Shown: positions 38,852 to 49,114 of the stretch, piece after piece | Layout of the letters: every line of letters begins with the position of its first letter | Position numbering within the stretch: position 1 is the stretch's first letter | NCBI GenBank assembly: GCA_007693595.1 | Contig: REDI01000026.1 | Span: 1 to 64,000, forward strand | Direction of reading: 5' to 3' | Source: Deltaproteobacteria bacterium | Lineage (GTDB): Bacteria; Myxococcota_A; UBA796; GCA-2862545 | DNA: 64,000 bases | Position numbers and translations under genes: made by a program | The notes under the pieces: generated by a model | Seen by the model: only the letters and a program-made list of their open reading frames with translations | Database searches by the model: none | What the model was told of the DNA's origin: nothing

Positions 38852-41665
38852 CTAGATGTCGGATCCGAGCATCTCGTACTCGTGGCCCTCGACCACGAGG
38901 TACCAACCCAGGTTCTCCATGCGGTTGTAGAAGATGATCCTGGGCTCGCCATCGCGTTGCTTTGTCACGACGCCCGCTTTGGCGAAGGAGCGGACCGCCT
39001 GCACCACCTCGGGAGCACCGAACTCCGAGAGCTGGCGCGCGCGGCTCCGCCCCCCACCCGGCCGACGCCCCTTGTCGTCGGTGCTTACGATGCGCTGACC
39101 CTTCTCGTTGAGGATGGTGATCTCGCGCACGCCCCGAACCCCCGCCGGCAGCTCGAGCAGGTTGTCGATGATGTAGTCGTAGGTGAGCGAAGCCCCCGCC
39201 ACACCGAGCAGGTCGCCTTCGACGTCGAAGATCGGCTGCGAGACGGTGAGCACGAAGCCTTGGCCGTGGAAGTCAGGGATGGGGGGGTTCCACCGGGGCC
39301 CCGGCTGACGCTGGAAGGTGTTCTTGACGTCTTGGTACCAGGGCTGCTCGCGCGGGTCGAAGTTCTCGATGCCTACCTTGCCCGGGAAGTGAACATACGC
39401 CCCGGACTCGAGGCCGATGAAGGCCCAGGTGAGCGGCGTACCTTGCTCGCCGATCCGGCGCTGGTAGCGGGCCGGGGTGAAGCGCGCCGCCTCTTCGGAC
39501 TCGGACCGGAGCAGCACGCTGCGCAGGTTGCTGCCCATGTCGGCGAGCCGGGCGATCTGCCGCTCGGCCGCCTCGGAGTCGGCCTTGGCCGGCATGACGA
39601 AGACCGGGTGAAGCAGGTTGATCTCGTGCCCGTACCGGCCCGATTGCTTCATGCCGGGGACGCTCCGCTCCGTCTTGCCGTTGAAGTCTGGCGCCAGGTA
39701 GATCGTGCGTTCCGAGGTGCTGCCGAGGGTGAGCTTCTCGGAGGCGGTCGCGGCCATGGTGCCGAGGAGGCCTTCATACTTGATGAACTGCCCATCGATG
39801 CGCGACGCCTGCGCGAAGACGTTGGAGCTGAGGCCGTTGACCCGCGTCTGGCGCTCGGACTGCTGGAAGGTCCAGATCGCCGCCCCAGCGCCTACCCCGA
39901 TCACCCCGATGACGGCGGTGAAGAGCACGATGAGCACCATAAAGGCGGTCAAGGCCGTGTGTCGGCGGATCCACCGGCCCGCCGCCTGGGTGATGGAGTC
40001 AGGCTTGGCCTTGATCGCCTCGTCGCGCGTGAAACGGCGGATGTCTTCGGCCATGGCTTGGATGTGCTCGTAGCGCTTGGACCGATCCTTGTGGGTGGCG
40101 CGCTCAACAATGGCGCGAAGCTCCCGGGGGATGTGGTCCCCGTACTTGTGCTTGAGCGGATCCTTGCTCGCGTCTTGCTGACGCATGACGATCTTCATGG
40201 CTGACTTGCCGGTGACCGCCTGGTTGAGGCTGATGAGCTCGTAGAGGATCAGCCCCATAGAATACTGATCGCTCTTGTGATCGAGGGTCGCGTTGTCGCC
40301 ATTGGCCTGCTCGGGCGACATATACTGCGGCGTTCCGATGATCAGCTCGGGATCTTCTTCGGGGGAGTGGAGCAGCTCGACCTTCTGCTCGGTGACGATG
40401 TCGCTCTCGTTGACGACCTTGGCGATGCCCCAGTCCATGACATAGACCTCGCCATAGTGCCCGATCATGATGTTCTCGGGCTTGAGGTCTCGGTGTACGA
40501 TGCCACGGCGGTGGGCGTAGTACATCGCGTCGCAGCAGCGCAAGAAGAGCTCCAGGCGCTTCTCGAGGGAGTACTCATCGGGGATCTTGCGGCGGTTTTT
40601 CTCGTAGGCTTCCTTGATCTCGTCGATGTAGTCTTCGACGGTCTTGCCGTTGATGAGCTTCATCGTGTAGGCGAGCATGCCGTCGGCGGACTGCTCGAGC
40701 TGGTAGACCGGCACGATGTTGGGGTGATCGAGCTGCGCCGTGATCTGCGCTTCGCCGTAGAACTTGGCCGCGAGCTGCGCATTCGCCGCGATCTCTTCGG
40801 ACATCTCCTTGTAGGCGACCAATCGGAGCAGATCGTTGTCGCGCGCCTTCAGGACGCGGCCCATGGCGCCCTCGCCCACCTTCCCTACGAAGTTGTAGTC
40901 GCGGCGGAGCAGATCCGTGTTGTCGGAGGGCTGGCTGGCCCCCTCGGCGCGCAGCGCGAACATGGTGCGCTTGAGCCGATCGCGCGCTGAGGTCTGTCGG
41001 CCGGACGATCGACGCCCCCCAGTGCTTCGTGCCCCCGAGGAGCGCGCGCCAGAGCGGGCCCCGGATCGCCTGCGCCCGCCCGTGCGGGATCCCGTCCGGG
41101 TCTTTCGCCGCTTCGGACGGCCCTCGTCGTCTTGCGCGGCGCGGTCGCGCTCGGCGCGGGCCTCTTTGGCCGGGTCCCCTTCGCCGCCTTCGTCGCTCTC
41201 GTCGCTCTCGTCGCTCTCGTCGCTCTCGTCGCTCTCGTCGTCGTCAGCACCTTGCTCCTCTTGCTCGGGCTCGGCGCCGTCGCGCTCAGGATCCGCAGGC
41301 GCGTCTCGTTGTGTGTCGGAGGTCGTGTCTTCGGGCGCCGAGGGCGCATCGGAGCTCGGGGGTGGCTCGCTCGCGTCGCCGGGCGGCGGCTCGGAGGACC
41401 CCGTGGCGCCTCGGGTCCCTTGCCTGCGTTCGGCGGGTGCGGGCGTGTTCTTACGCGCCAACTTCTCGACGGCGGAGGTGTCGAGGGTGCCTTCGCGGAG
41501 CATCTCGTCGACGAGGCCCTGAGGCACCAGCTCTTGGTCCTTGAGGTAGCTCAAAAATCGAACCAGATCGCCCGTGCCGCTCTGTCGCACGAAGTCAGCA
41601 TAGACACGCGATAGATCCTGGTCAATACTAGGCTGTAGCGCCGCCTTGAGATCATTGAAGCGCAT
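38852..41665 (-). CDS. Transmembrane Ser/Thr protein kinase with extracytoplasmic Cache-like sensor
   Basis: 937 aa. A helical N-terminal region (about 1-75) is followed by a long disordered linker with an acidic Asp-Glu-Ser repeat (142-165) and then a basic Arg/Ser/Gly stretch (185-230). The kinase domain spans about 255-545: GEGAMGRV, HRDLKPEN (391-398), DWG in place of DFG (411-413), GTPQYMSPEQ. A membrane helix lies at about 570-599. The rest is a periplasmic Cache-type sensor with the typical FDPREQPWYQDVKN and VSQPIFDVEGDLLGVAG. It probably phosphorylates targets in response to an external ligand. The start at 41665 was chosen over 41701 because GAAGGG lies ten bases upstream. Confidence 0.9.
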   Translation of the reverse strand: MRFNDLKAALQPSIDQDLSRVYADFVRQSGTGDLVRFLSYLKDQELVPQGLVDEMLREGTLDTSAVEKLARKNTPAPAERRQGTRGATGSSEPPPGDASEPPPSSDAPSAPEDTTSDTQRDAPADPERDGAEPEQEEQGADDDESDESDESDESDESDEGGEGDPAKEARAERDRAAQDDEGRPKRRKTRTGSRTGGRRRSGARSGARSSGARSTGGRRSSGRQTSARDRLKRTMFALRAEGASQPSDNTDLLRRDYNFVGKVGEGAMGRVLKARDNDLLRLVAYKEMSEEIAANAQLAAKFYGEAQITAQLDHPNIVPVYQLEQSADGMLAYTMKLINGKTVEDYIDEIKEAYEKNRRKIPDEYSLEKRLELFLRCCDAMYYAHRRGIVHRDLKPENIMIGHYGEVYVMDWGIAKVVNESDIVTEQKVELLHSPEEDPELIIGTPQYMSPEQANGDNATLDHKSDQYSMGLILYELISLNQAVTGKSAMKIVMRQQDASKDPLKHKYGDHIPRELRAIVERATHKDRSKRYEHIQAMAEDIRRFTRDEAIKAKPDSITQAAGRWIRRHTALTAFMVLIVLFTAVIGVIGVGAGAAIWTFQQSERQTRVNGLSSNVFAQASRIDGQFIKYEGLLGTMAATASEKLTLGSTSERTIYLAPDFNGKTERSVPGMKQSGRYGHEINLLHPVFVMPAKADSEAAERQIARLADMGSNLRSVLLRSESEEAARFTPARYQRRIGEQGTPLTWAFIGLESGAYVHFPGKVGIENFDPREQPWYQDVKNTFQRQPGPRWNPPIPDFHGQGFVLTVSQPIFDVEGDLLGVAGASLTYDYIIDNLLELPAGVRGVREITILNEKGQRIVSTDDKGRRPGGGRSRARQLSEFGAPEVVQAVRSFAKAGVVTKQRDGEPRIIFYNRMENLGWYLVVEGHEYEMLGSDI
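41191..41242. repeat. 9-bp tandem repeat inside the Cache-kinase gene
   Basis: The unit GTCGCTCTC is repeated five times in a row (41192-41236) and then degenerates to GTC triplets. On the coding (minus) strand it encodes a Glu-Ser-Asp triplet run in the disordered linker. A multiple of three keeps the frame, so the number of units can vary without breaking the kinase. Confidence 0.85.
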
Positions 41666-41748
41666 GCGATGGTCACCCTTCTCAGCTAGGCGCACGACCA
41701 TACCACGAGCGGGCGCCTCGGGCTGGTTCGCTCACGACCCGAAACGAC

Positions 41749-46003: not shown

Positions 46004-46188
46004 CACTCCTCCCTTCGAGGAACGACCCATGACGGGCTTCGACCCCTCGCGCAGAGAGCAGTATGGCAAGGCACAGGCTCTCTGCCAAGAGCGGTCGAGA
46101 GGTCATGATCTGTCTGCGTTCCGCACCGGCCTCGACGAAGAAGGCCGTCGGGGGCGTCTACCGGGCGAGCTCACCCAAGGGAGTCCCC

Positions 46189-46839
46189 ATGGTCCGTTCA
46201 ACTATCCTGGCGATCGGCTTGACGCTCTCTGGGGTCGCGAGCGCGGAGCGCCCGCTAGCGATCCCCGGAGACGCCCCCCCGGTCCAAGGGCCGGAGCAGC
46301 CCCACACGAACCCAGGATATGGGCATGACTCCTACGACACGCGGTCTTGCTCCCTCGGGCAGAGCTGTACCCCCCACTCCGAGCCACCGAGGCGAGCGGC
46401 GGGTGGCTACGTGGGGCTCAGCCTGGGTGCTACCGGCTTGTACGGCGGGCCATCGACCAGCTTCGATCTGGAGGCCGGCTTTCACATTCAGCGCACCTTC
46501 CTGCTCAGCGCGACGGCTGGTCGAACGACGGACTGGGTCGGACGGACCGGCCTGACCTGGGTCGGGGTGCGGCCTGGGATCGTGTTCACGCCCGACCAAC
46601 CCTTGCTCGTGCAAGCCGATGTGCTGCTGGGGATCGGGGCTCAGACCTACGCCCGTGATCCTCGCTCAGGTCCCCTCATCAACGTCATCGAGCCCAGGTT
46701 GAGCCTCGGGGTTCCACTCCATCACTGGGGACAACTGCAGGTCTACGCGGGCATGCGTACCGTGCCTGGCTGGCAGCCCGAGTCCCGGGCGCTGTCGGCT
46801 CCCACCGCCGGGTTGGCGATGCGCTTAGGCTACTTCTAA
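46189..46839 (+). CDS. Outer-membrane-like protein, unknown function
   Basis: 216 aa. Signal peptide MVRSTILAIGLTLSGVASA, then a short segment with two cysteines (RSCSLGQSC), then a barrel-like region (GGYVGLSLGATGLYGG ... FLLSATAGRTTDWVG ... LQVYAGMRTVPGW) ending in RLGYF, a terminal aromatic typical of outer-membrane proteins. An ATG at 46189 is used because the signal peptide begins there and AGGGAG lies just upstream. No family recognised. Confidence 0.65.
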   Translation: MVRSTILAIGLTLSGVASAERPLAIPGDAPPVQGPEQPHTNPGYGHDSYDTRSCSLGQSCTPHSEPPRRAAGGYVGLSLGATGLYGGPSTSFDLEAGFHIQRTFLLSATAGRTTDWVGRTGLTWVGVRPGIVFTPDQPLLVQADVLLGIGAQTYARDPRSGPLINVIEPRLSLGVPLHHWGQLQVYAGMRTVPGWQPESRALSAPTAGLAMRLGYF

Positions 46840-46924
46840 ACCAACGAAATACCAAGAGACCCCCGCGCGAGCGCGAGAACACGGTAGGATAGACGGCCCT
46901 CTCTCTCTTCGCCGTGGAGCCCAC

Positions 46925-48616
46925 GTGGACTTCTCCGAACTCAAGCCCACCGAACGGATCTTCGAAGGACCCGCCGCGAAGGTGATCGAGCTTCAGCACC
47001 GGGGGCACGTCTGGAGCGCCTTGGTACACCGAGCGCCCTACCGCGACCCCGAGCTCGTCGACGAGGTCTTGGATCGAGGCCGAGGCTTCTTGACGAACCC
47101 CATGATCTCCGGCCTGGTCGAGATCGATGACTGGTCCCCCGGGGATCACCAGCTGCTCTACCCCACCGGGCGCGTCTGGAGCCTGGCCGACCTCCTCGCC
47201 CACCATCGCGCCGCGCTTGGCCCGCGCGCCGGACTCGAGCTCGCGTACCGCGCCGCCCTCATCCTCCAAGAGGCCAGCGCCGCAGGCGAGGAGAGCGGCG
47301 TTCCTCTCCACGGCGATCCGACCCCTTGGCGCTGGCTCATCGATGCCGAGGGGGACCTCCAGCTCATCGGCTGGGGGGTGCCTGCGCTCGAGCTCTACGC
47401 GCTGGATCGGGACCCCGACCTCAAGCTCAGCGCCACCTGCTACCAATACCTCGCGCCCGAGCGTCTCGAGGGCGGCGACGAGGATCTCTCTACCGATCTC
47501 TTCACCTTGGCCCTCATCGCCGCCGAGGCCTTGCTGGGCGAGCCGGTCTACAGCGGCACCGCCCACGCGGTACGTATCCAGGCGGAGCGGGCAGAAGGAG
47601 GCCGGAGGCTCTACGCCCTGCGTGACCGCATCCCACCCGAGGTCGCCACCTTCCTGCGGCGCGCCCTCGCTCCCTATCGCGACGGCCGGCACCCCGACGT
47701 CGAAGACTTCATCCGAGAAGCTCACGATCTCCTCTACAGTCCGCTCTGCGAGGGGCCGAGCCTGACGGAGCTCGTTCAACCCCTCGTGCGCTCGACCCCG
47801 GCGCTACCCCAACCGCCCCTCGAGCCCGACCACCACGCCGATCGTTGGCGCCCCGTGGCCCGTCGAGGCCAAGGTTCAGGGCAGCGCCCTATCGACGACG
47901 TCGAGGCCCCCGAAGCGTCCTCGACCCTGCCGCTCGCCGCGCGATCCGCCTCTCGGCCCAAGTCTGCCGTCGAGGAGCTCCGGCGGGGACTACGGGAGTC
48001 TCAGGTGGTCCGAGACGCGAGCCTCCGGGACCGCTTGGCCCACACCCAGGGGCCACGCGCCGCCATGCGGGATCGCACCACCCTCTTTCCCACCCTCCCC
48101 ATCGAAGGCCGAGCCCTTCGCTACCTCATCGAGATGCCCGAAGGCGGCACGGTCTGGGCCCGTCTGGGACCTGACGAGACCCTCGCCATGAGCGCGGCCC
48201 GAGTCGCCGACCAGTCGCGCCACACCCCCGTCGGCCCCGATGGGGCTATCGAAGGCTGGTTCCGGCTGACCCAGGGCGGCGAAGCCTGGTTCGGCTGCAC
48301 CCTCACCCGGGTGATCTCGGCCCCCGATCCGGTCCAGCTCGAGTTCATCCCCAACCGACTCTTCCGCGCGAGGATCTCCGTGCACGAAGACGAACCCCCC
48401 GTGGAGCTGGATGTCGGCACGGCGATCCACGCGGCCTTCCTCGTGAGCCACCTCCGGCATCGCTACGAGCTTCGAGCTCGAGACTGGGATCTCTACGCCG
48501 ACGATGAGCGCCCTCTCGACCCGTGGCAGGTCTTAGACGACTTCGAGCCCAAGGATGGCTTCCTGCTCAAGCTGCGCCGTCAACGGCGCGGCGGCCGACG
48601 ACGGCGCGTGCGCTGA
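46925..48616 (+). CDS. Predicted pseudokinase with two C-terminal ubiquitin-like (beta-grasp) domains
   Basis: 563 aa. Residues about 1-285 follow a protein-kinase outline (LHGDPTPWRWLID at 128-140, QYLAPERLEG at 174-183), but the Gly loop is absent, the VAIK lysine is not seen, the catalytic-loop Asn is missing and DFG reads GWG (149-151), so it is probably catalytically dead. After a Pro/Arg-rich linker come two beta-grasp-like segments, about 398-465 and 481-552. The second has the layout of ubiquitin (RARISV... helix ...WDLYADDERPLDPW...DGFLLKLRR) and is followed by RRGG (554-557) and a short basic tail. Start GTG, with GGAG five bases before it. Confidence 0.72.
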   Translation: MDFSELKPTERIFEGPAAKVIELQHRGHVWSALVHRAPYRDPELVDEVLDRGRGFLTNPMISGLVEIDDWSPGDHQLLYPTGRVWSLADLLAHHRAALGPRAGLELAYRAALILQEASAAGEESGVPLHGDPTPWRWLIDAEGDLQLIGWGVPALELYALDRDPDLKLSATCYQYLAPERLEGGDEDLSTDLFTLALIAAEALLGEPVYSGTAHAVRIQAERAEGGRRLYALRDRIPPEVATFLRRALAPYRDGRHPDVEDFIREAHDLLYSPLCEGPSLTELVQPLVRSTPALPQPPLEPDHHADRWRPVARRGQGSGQRPIDDVEAPEASSTLPLAARSASRPKSAVEELRRGLRESQVVRDASLRDRLAHTQGPRAAMRDRTTLFPTLPIEGRALRYLIEMPEGGTVWARLGPDETLAMSAARVADQSRHTPVGPDGAIEGWFRLTQGGEAWFGCTLTRVISAPDPVQLEFIPNRLFRARISVHEDEPPVELDVGTAIHAAFLVSHLRHRYELRARDWDLYADDERPLDPWQVLDDFEPKDGFLLKLRRQRRGGRRRRVR

Positions 48617-48646
48617 GCAGGTCCACGAGGCCTGGCGGGCAACACG

Positions 48647-49114
48647 TCAGCCCAAACCCCAGCGCCCCAACCACGCCTCGATCGCCTCGTCGAGCAACCC
48701 ATAGACCTGGTCGAAGCCATCCGGGCCCCCGTAGTAGGGATCGGGTACGTCGCCGCCCGTCGTCGGCTCGAGCATGAGGTGCACCCGCCCGTGGGCCTCT
48801 GACGGGTAGAGCCTGTGCAGGTTTCGTAGATTAGACCTATCCATCGCCATGATGACATCGAATTGTTCAACATCGTCGGGGCGCGCCTGCCTCGCGGGGC
48901 CGGGCACGGGAGCACCGTGCCGGCGCAGGACCTCCTGTGTTCGCGGATCGGGGGCTTCCCCCACGTGCCACGCGCCGGTCCCGGCGCTGTCGACATGGAA
49001 GGCGGGCGAGGCCGAGCGCCCCGCGAGACGGTGACGGAAGATGCCCTCGGCCATCGGGCTACGGCAGATATTTCCAAGGCATACGAACAGGACTGAGCGT
49101 GGCGCATCGGGCAT
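48647..49114 (-). CDS. Low-molecular-weight protein tyrosine phosphatase
   Basis: 155 aa. The active-site loop VCLGNICRSP holds Cys12 and Arg18 (C-x5-R), and the general acid is Asp125 in DPYYGG. It dephosphorylates tyrosine (or arginine) phosphate in proteins; bacterial members often regulate capsule kinases, but no BY-kinase is adjacent. Its setting among Hanks-type kinases is suggestive only. Complete, with GGAG seven bases before the ATG. Confidence 0.95.
   Translation of the reverse strand: MPDAPRSVLFVCLGNICRSPMAEGIFRHRLAGRSASPAFHVDSAGTGAWHVGEAPDPRTQEVLRRHGAPVPGPARQARPDDVEQFDVIMAMDRSNLRNLHRLYPSEAHGRVHLMLEPTTGGDVPDPYYGGPDGFDQVYGLLDEAIEAWLGRWGLG

What the first reader, a model, noticed from the sequence alone, without database searches (positions are those of the whole stretch)
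46925..48616. Pseudokinase fused to ubiquitin-like domains ending in Arg-Arg-Gly-Gly plus a cleavable-looking tail
The kinase half has lost the Gly loop, the VAIK Lys, the catalytic-loop Asn and the DFG Asp (GWG), while the C terminus looks like two beta-grasp domains. The last one ends LLKLRR-Q-RRGG followed by six basic residues (RRRRVR), strikingly like a ubiquitin precursor with a short tail after Gly-Gly. A dead kinase scaffold carrying such a domain would be an unusual signalling or conjugation-type module; it lies close to two real kinases and a tyrosine phosphatase. No E1, E2 or JAB-type protease gene is in this window, so conjugation is speculative.
Basis: partly seen in the sequence, partly recalled or inferred. 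Interest (0 to 1): 0.68.

Follow-up and report, generated by a model that had tools for sequence, protein, structure and literature searches.

The report
Dead kinase with paired ubiquitin-like domains
The gene encodes a catalytically dead protein kinase joined to two ubiquitin-like domains. It is an extra copy of a protein family that sits in phage-tail-like injection machine loci of related bacteria, and its ubiquitin-style Gly-Gly ending occurs in no relative, so protein tagging is unlikely.

Summary
The ORF and both halves are real. Window 46925-48616 (+) encodes 563 aa: a pseudokinase (1-290), a disordered linker, and two tandem beta-grasp domains (398-476, 479-552). AlphaFold2 models both halves confidently. 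Foldseek matches the N half to PknB/Stk1 kinases and the C half to linear di-ubiquitin and ISG15.

None of 27 homologues with a complete C terminus has Gly-Gly, and 16 end within two residues of the last beta strand. GG in the last 12 residues occurs in 11.5% of genes here. No E1, JAB or E2 gene was found near it.

The stronger finding is the family. The C-terminal module was found in 49 of 58 related (Myxococcota-type) genomes, nearly always once. Where context was readable, the gene lies in a contractile injection system (CIS) locus: sheath, LysM tube, hub, gp25, Baseplate_J, Tail_P2_I, a YukD-Ubl/multi-TM/RING-like membrane protein, this pseudokinase, a lytic transglycosylase and a membrane Ser/Thr kinase. 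The window's genome carries that locus (C7/C54). The window gene is a diverged second copy outside it.

Likely role (inferred): a soluble, non-covalent adaptor, functionally like the YukC pseudokinase and YukD Ubl of type VIIb secretion.

The parts
46914..46919 (+). ribosome-binding-like stretch GTGGAG, 5 nt before the GTG start
   Evidence: Read from the sequence; not tested further.
46925..48616 (+). whole gene: pseudokinase - linker - tandem ubiquitin-like domains, 563 aa
46925..47794 (+). pseudokinase domain, residues 1-290 (H129-G130-D131, R136 in place of Asn, G149-W150-G151 in place of DFG, no VAIK Lys; APE and helix-F Asp kept)
   Evidence: AF2, Foldseek to Stk1/PknB, hhalign to real kinases 98.3%, motif table
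47795..48115 (+). linker, residues 291-397, largely disordered, with one predicted helix 348-371
   Evidence: pLDDT under 50 at 300-346 and 366-394; variable length and composition in homologues
48116..48352 (+). ubiquitin-like (beta-grasp) domain 1, residues 398-476
   Evidence: AF2; Foldseek to linear di-ubiquitin/ISG15
48359..48580 (+). ubiquitin-like (beta-grasp) domain 2, residues 479-552; YukD-like
   Evidence: AF2; Foldseek; weak YukD match; family profile best matches ubiquitin designs
48581..48613 (+). basic tail QRRGGRRRRVR (GG = 48590-48595); not conserved, probably incidental
   Evidence: disordered from 557; absent or different in all 27 homologues with a complete C terminus; base rate of GG

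Best explanation
The gene is a dispersed, diverged paralogue of a protein family dedicated to a contractile injection system (CIS). The pseudokinase half no longer phosphorylates; it is a binding platform, probably for a partner of the kinase/phosphorylation circuit. The tandem ubiquitin-like half is a non-covalent docking module, like YukD/EsaB or the Ubl domain of EccD, not a conjugated tag. In the canonical CIS locus it would link the injection machine to a membrane YukD-Ubl/RING-like protein and a membrane Ser/Thr kinase, controlling assembly, anchoring or firing. The window copy would use the same adaptor chemistry for the same machine or a new client. Shown: architecture, loss of catalytic motifs, tandem-Ubl fold (predicted), CIS linkage of the canonical copies, the extra-copy status of this gene, absence of a conserved Gly-Gly. 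Inferred: adaptor function, partners, regulation of the CIS. The window copy's own client is unknown.
For: Family-wide loss of catalytic residues, with the structural APE and helix-F motifs kept. Tandem Ubl fold with weak YukD affinity in 5 of 20 members. Conserved gene order around canonical copies: SLT protein in 17 and the next gene in 16 of 18 loci examined; Baseplate_J, Tail_P2_I, YukD+RING, hub, gp25, LysM-tube and CIS13-family matches. The window's own genome has this locus at C54 and, at the facing contig end, sheath and tube on C7. The C-terminal module is in 49/58 relatives, nearly always one copy, two only in G000 and G014; it co-occurs with the YukD-RING protein (Fisher p 0.001). 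The locus kinase is catalytically intact and usually has a TM helix; the window protein has none. Precedent: T7SSb has the pseudokinase YukC/EssB, which cannot bind ATP, and the Ubl YukD/EsaB (PMC9600267, PMC10765036).
Against: No experimental data. The window copy is not next to CIS genes, and its nearest relative (G001:C928) is not syntenic with the window, so its link to the machine is by homology only. Co-occurrence with the CIS tube gene itself is uninformative, because nearly all relatives have one (p 0.58). Similarity between this Ubl module and the RING protein's YukD domain is not significant. An Asp is retained in the catalytic loop of this copy.
Confidence: 0.5

Rival explanations
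1. A conjugation-type modifier: the C-terminal Ubl is cut after Gly-Gly and attached to targets by an E1/E2-like relay, with the CIS RING protein as ligase.
For: GG is placed 4-5 residues past the last strand as in ubiquitin, with a short tail. ISG15/linear di-ubiquitin is the closest fold. A RING-like YukD membrane protein exists in the CIS locus. Two ThiF and one marginal JAB gene exist in the genome.
Against: GG in 0 of 27 complete homologues; base rate 11.5%. ThiF and JAB lie on other contigs. No E2 found, though that search had no working control. B. subtilis YukD itself is not conjugated (stated in PMC1779556).
Confidence: 0.03
2. A regulator unrelated to the CIS: the module was co-opted as an adaptor for another pathway, for example the neighbouring kinases or the tyrosine phosphatase.
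For: The window gene lies among housekeeping genes, two kinases and an LMW phosphatase. The pseudokinase domain also occurs in proteins without the tandem Ubl in this genome (2063 aa at C89, others at C10 and C88), so it is a portable domain.
Against: The tandem-Ubl module of this copy is retained and matches the family profile strongly (E 5e-53), unlike the other paralogues examined (L033, L035, L036), where it was not found. No synteny supports a link with the neighbouring genes.
Confidence: 0.3
3. A CIS cargo/effector: the pseudokinase domain is a loading signal shared by several proteins with variable C-terminal parts.
For: Several paralogues in one genome share the N-terminal domain with different C-terminal parts, some very long.
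Against: The canonical copy is a conserved, usually single-copy member of the structural locus with a conserved C terminus, which is not effector-like. No toxin-like domain was found.
Confidence: 0.08
4. A decaying duplicate without function.
For: Extra copy, diverged from the CIS copy; only a congener (G001) has a close relative.
Against: The frame is intact over 563 codons, the folded domains are predicted with high confidence, and the paired copy in G001 keeps an open frame to its contig end with 50% identity.
Confidence: 0.07

Closest known systems
YukC/EssB pseudokinase with YukD/EsaB ubiquitin-like protein (type VIIb secretion, Bacillota)
   Same: Secretion-machine pseudokinase with the Gly loop, VAIK, catalytic and Mg-binding motifs partly missing, in one machine with a YukD-type Ubl that is not conjugated (PMC9600267, PMC10765036, PMC1779556).
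   Different: Here both parts are in one protein without a predicted TM segment, the Ubl is tandem, and the family's machine is a contractile (phage-tail-like) system. The kinase fold matches PknB/Stk1 first; YukC/EssB is not among the top 50 Foldseek hits.
ISG15 / linear di-ubiquitin
   Same: Two ubiquitin-like domains in tandem; top Foldseek matches, TM-score up to about 0.6 against ISG15.
   Different: About 11-15% identity; no conserved Gly-Gly; fused behind a pseudokinase; bacterial.
EccD of type VIIa secretion
   Same: YukD-like Ubl fused in a secretion-machine component (PMC10765036, PMC1779556).
   Different: EccD is a polytopic membrane protein; the protein here has no TM segment. The CIS-locus YukD-multiTM-RING protein is the closer parallel to EccD.
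T6SS threonine phosphorylation pathway (PpkA/PppA/Fha), from general knowledge
   Same: A Ser/Thr kinase circuit attached to a contractile injection machine.
   Different: No dead kinase or Ubl domains there as far as I know; no FHA match was seen in the genes scanned here.
eCIS loci catalogued in 2021 (PMC8213781)
   Same: Phage-tail-like injection operons with tube, sheath and baseplate.
   Different: That paper's text mentions neither YukD nor Myxococcota/Deltaproteobacteria, and kinases only as possible regulators or in references.

Membership tests
Protein kinase superfamily (Hanks type), as a pseudokinase | bilobal protein kinase fold | tested here: met
   AF2 and Foldseek to PknB/Stk1, E about 1e-12; hhalign 98.3%
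Protein kinase superfamily (Hanks type), as an active kinase | VAIK Lys, HRD Asp with Asn, DFG Asp | tested here: not met
   Lys, Asn and DFG Asp absent; HRD Asp kept in this copy
Ubiquitin-like beta-grasp | beta-grasp fold, here in tandem | tested here: met
   (predicted structure)
YukD/EsaB Ubl family (PF08817) | profile match above the curated cut-off | tested here: not met
   window copy 14.7 bits against cut-off 27; 5 of 20 family members match weakly, best E 0.0014
Conjugated ubiquitin-like modifiers | conserved C-terminal Gly or Gly-Gly | tested here: not met
   0 of 27 complete homologues have Gly-Gly
Conjugated ubiquitin-like modifiers | linked E1 and JAB genes | tested here: not met
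   ThiF on C4 and C34, marginal JAB on C32, none on C88 or C54
Conjugated ubiquitin-like modifiers | an E2 in the genome | tested here: inconclusive
   no UQ_con match, but no control genome rang either; prokaryotic E2 families were not searched
YukC/EssB (T7SSb pseudokinase) | TM helix and extracellular domain after the pseudokinase | tested here: not met
   no TM segment by hydropathy
Contractile injection system accessory protein | encoded within the CIS locus | tested here: not met
   window copy not in a CIS locus; met for canonical copies including G000:C54

The most novel reading that the evidence does not exclude
The CIS locus encodes a ubiquitin-style circuit (tandem Ubl, membrane YukD-RING protein, kinase and pseudokinase), and in this lineage the extra copy has gained a processable Gly-Gly and become a covalent modifier.
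Probability: 0.03. Interest if true: 0.9.

Novelty: new variant of a known kind. Interest (0 to 1): 0.5.

Why it matters
A pseudokinase and a YukD-type Ubl are both known core parts of type VIIb secretion. Finding the same two ingredients fused in one protein, conserved across an order of Myxococcota-type bacteria inside contractile injection loci with a YukD-RING-like membrane protein and a membrane kinase, suggests that this pair is a recurrent solution for controlling unrelated secretion machines. It gives a testable candidate for how such injection systems are anchored or triggered.

Tried and rejected
Ubiquitin-precursor/conjugation reading: rejected as the main reading on non-conservation and base rate. 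E1/JAB linkage: not found near the gene. Terminator hairpin as the reason for the Arg/Gly codons: the folding of 48575-48665 is not unusual (z -1.36) and no terminator was found. Defence-system reading: PADLOC hits (PD-T4-6, MkoA, mad6) fall on the kinase domain and look like generic Ser/Thr kinase similarity. Phage origin: no tblastn match in phage genomes. Profile comparison of the tandem Ubl with the YukD domain of the RING protein: not significant. Synteny of the window gene with its nearest relatives: only the gene itself matches, apart from kinase-to-kinase similarity. First all-against-all BLAST timed out.

Full report
WHAT IS THERE. AlphaFold2 with a 23-sequence alignment models residues 1-290 as a protein kinase fold and residues 398-476 and 479-552 as two beta-grasp domains, with a mostly disordered linker and a disordered tail from 557. 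The C-terminal part alone reaches pLDDT 88 and pTM 0.81. Foldseek against solved structures puts the N half with Stk1/PknB (E about 1e-12) and the C half with linear di-ubiquitin and ISG15 (E about 1e-8 to 1e-7).

THE KINASE IS DEAD. A profile comparison with genuine kinases from the related loci (hhalign 98.3%) places HGDPTPWR opposite HRDIKPSN and GWG opposite DFG, with no Lys in the VAIK position. Relatives show the same kind of loss (HGxxxPWR, mostly GYG or GFG) while keeping the PPER (APE) motif and the helix-F Asp. One nuance: this copy keeps the catalytic Asp (HGD), which most relatives have lost, and the first Gly of the Gly loop. Lack of activity is read from sequence; it was not measured.

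THE GLY-GLY IS NOT CONSERVED. A profile cut at the last beta strand was used to read the tail of every homologue found. None of 27 homologues with a complete C terminus has GG, and 16 end within two residues of the profile's end; the others carry short, variable and often basic tails such as PKPKAKT or QRTRSR. In 505 genes called from these genomes by a simple codon-position rule, 11.5% have GG in the last 12 residues. The nearest relative, G001:C928, is cut at its contig end before the C-terminal part, so one informative sequence is missing. ThiF matches lie on contigs C4 and C34 and one marginal JAB on C32; none on C88 or C54. The E2 search gave nothing, but no control genome rang either.

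THE FAMILY LIVES IN CONTRACTILE INJECTION LOCI. The tandem-Ubl module is found in 49 of 58 related genomes, nearly always once; two copies appear only in G000 and G014. Around the canonical copies the gene order is conserved: Baseplate_J, Tail_P2_I, a CIS13-family match, a YukD-Ubl/RING-like protein, a divergent gene, the pseudokinase-Ubl gene, a protein with an SLT transglycosylase domain, a gene of unknown function, a Ser/Thr kinase and a TPR protein. The hub (GPD), gp25 and a second Baseplate_J in the window's genome, and a LysM-bearing tube protein in G011, complete the picture. In the window's genome the locus runs along C54 to its contig end, with sheath and tube genes near the end of C7 (length 88438). 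That the two contig ends join is inferred from the gene order in G011.

THE PARTNERS. The YukD protein has a YukD domain (E 2e-8), three to six hydrophobic segments by a simple hydropathy scan, and a C-terminal RING-like cluster in which all eight Cys/His are invariant in 11 sequences. The locus kinase keeps VAxK, HRDIKPSN and DFG in all ten sequences aligned and has a strong TM segment in eight of them. Presence of the tandem-Ubl module goes with presence of the YukD-RING protein (48 of 49 against 5 of 9; Fisher p 0.001). The genomes are related and some incomplete, so this is suggestive only.

THE WINDOW COPY. It is a second, diverged copy. In the tree of pseudokinase domains it groups with G001:C928 (support 99) and apart from the CIS-locus copies, to which the C54 copy of the same genome belongs. 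Its surroundings are two kinases, an LMW tyrosine phosphatase, a beta-lactamase-like protein, formate-tetrahydrofolate ligase and NAD synthase. Other pseudokinase paralogues in the genome have different C-terminal parts, so the pseudokinase domain is portable. In this genome only the window copy and the C54 copy were found to keep the whole architecture.

MECHANISM. The best-supported reading is a soluble, non-covalent adaptor. The pseudokinase would bind a partner in the phosphorylation circuit, and the tandem Ubl would dock on the machine or on the membrane YukD-RING protein. Precedent is type VIIb secretion, where the pseudokinase YukC/EssB does not bind ATP and contacts other components, with a weak but reproducible two-hybrid signal with the Ubl YukD (PMC9600267; review PMC10765036). 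YukD is reported not to be conjugated (PMC1779556). These functional steps are inference: no partner was tested.

NOVELTY. No paper in the held library combines 'contractile injection system' with 'pseudokinase', but subscription journals are largely missing from it. From memory, bacterial RING and YukD associations were surveyed around 2011 by Burroughs, Iyer and Aravind; that paper was not available here and may describe part of the locus. I rate the finding a new variant of a known kind.

Noticed in passing
L034:10601-11551 (-) (G000:C54), aligned in A4: Membrane protein with a YukD Ubl, multiple hydrophobic segments and a C-terminal RING-like C4HC3 cluster, found in 53 of 58 relatives and encoded in the CIS locus; a ubiquitin-like plus RING-like combination in a contractile injection system.
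   Followed up: partly
L034:2134-15001, L089 (G000:C54) and L111-L113 (G000:C7): The genome's own contractile injection locus, apparently split over two contig ends; the divergent gene (L034:8436-10565 +) and the 275-aa gene (L034:4042-4866 -) have no family match.
   Followed up: partly
G000:C89 (L036:2840-9028 -), G000:C10 (L035), G000:C88:103737-104618 (L033): Further pseudokinase paralogues in the same genome, one in a 2063-aa ORF with no other Pfam domain; the C88 one lies just after another kinase-like ORF.
   Followed up: partly
L067, L072 (CAMCWU010000054.1, CAMCWU010000002.1): Records titled Klebsiella pneumoniae whose proteins group with these Myxococcota-type MAGs; the organism label is probably wrong.
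   Followed up: no
window 46063-46839 (+): 258-aa ORF 85 bases upstream on the same strand, with a signal-peptide-like stretch near its N terminus and no Pfam match; could share a transcript with the finding.
   Followed up: no
window 38852-41701 (-): Ser/Thr kinase with a near-cut-off dCache sensor match at its C-terminal side.
   Followed up: no
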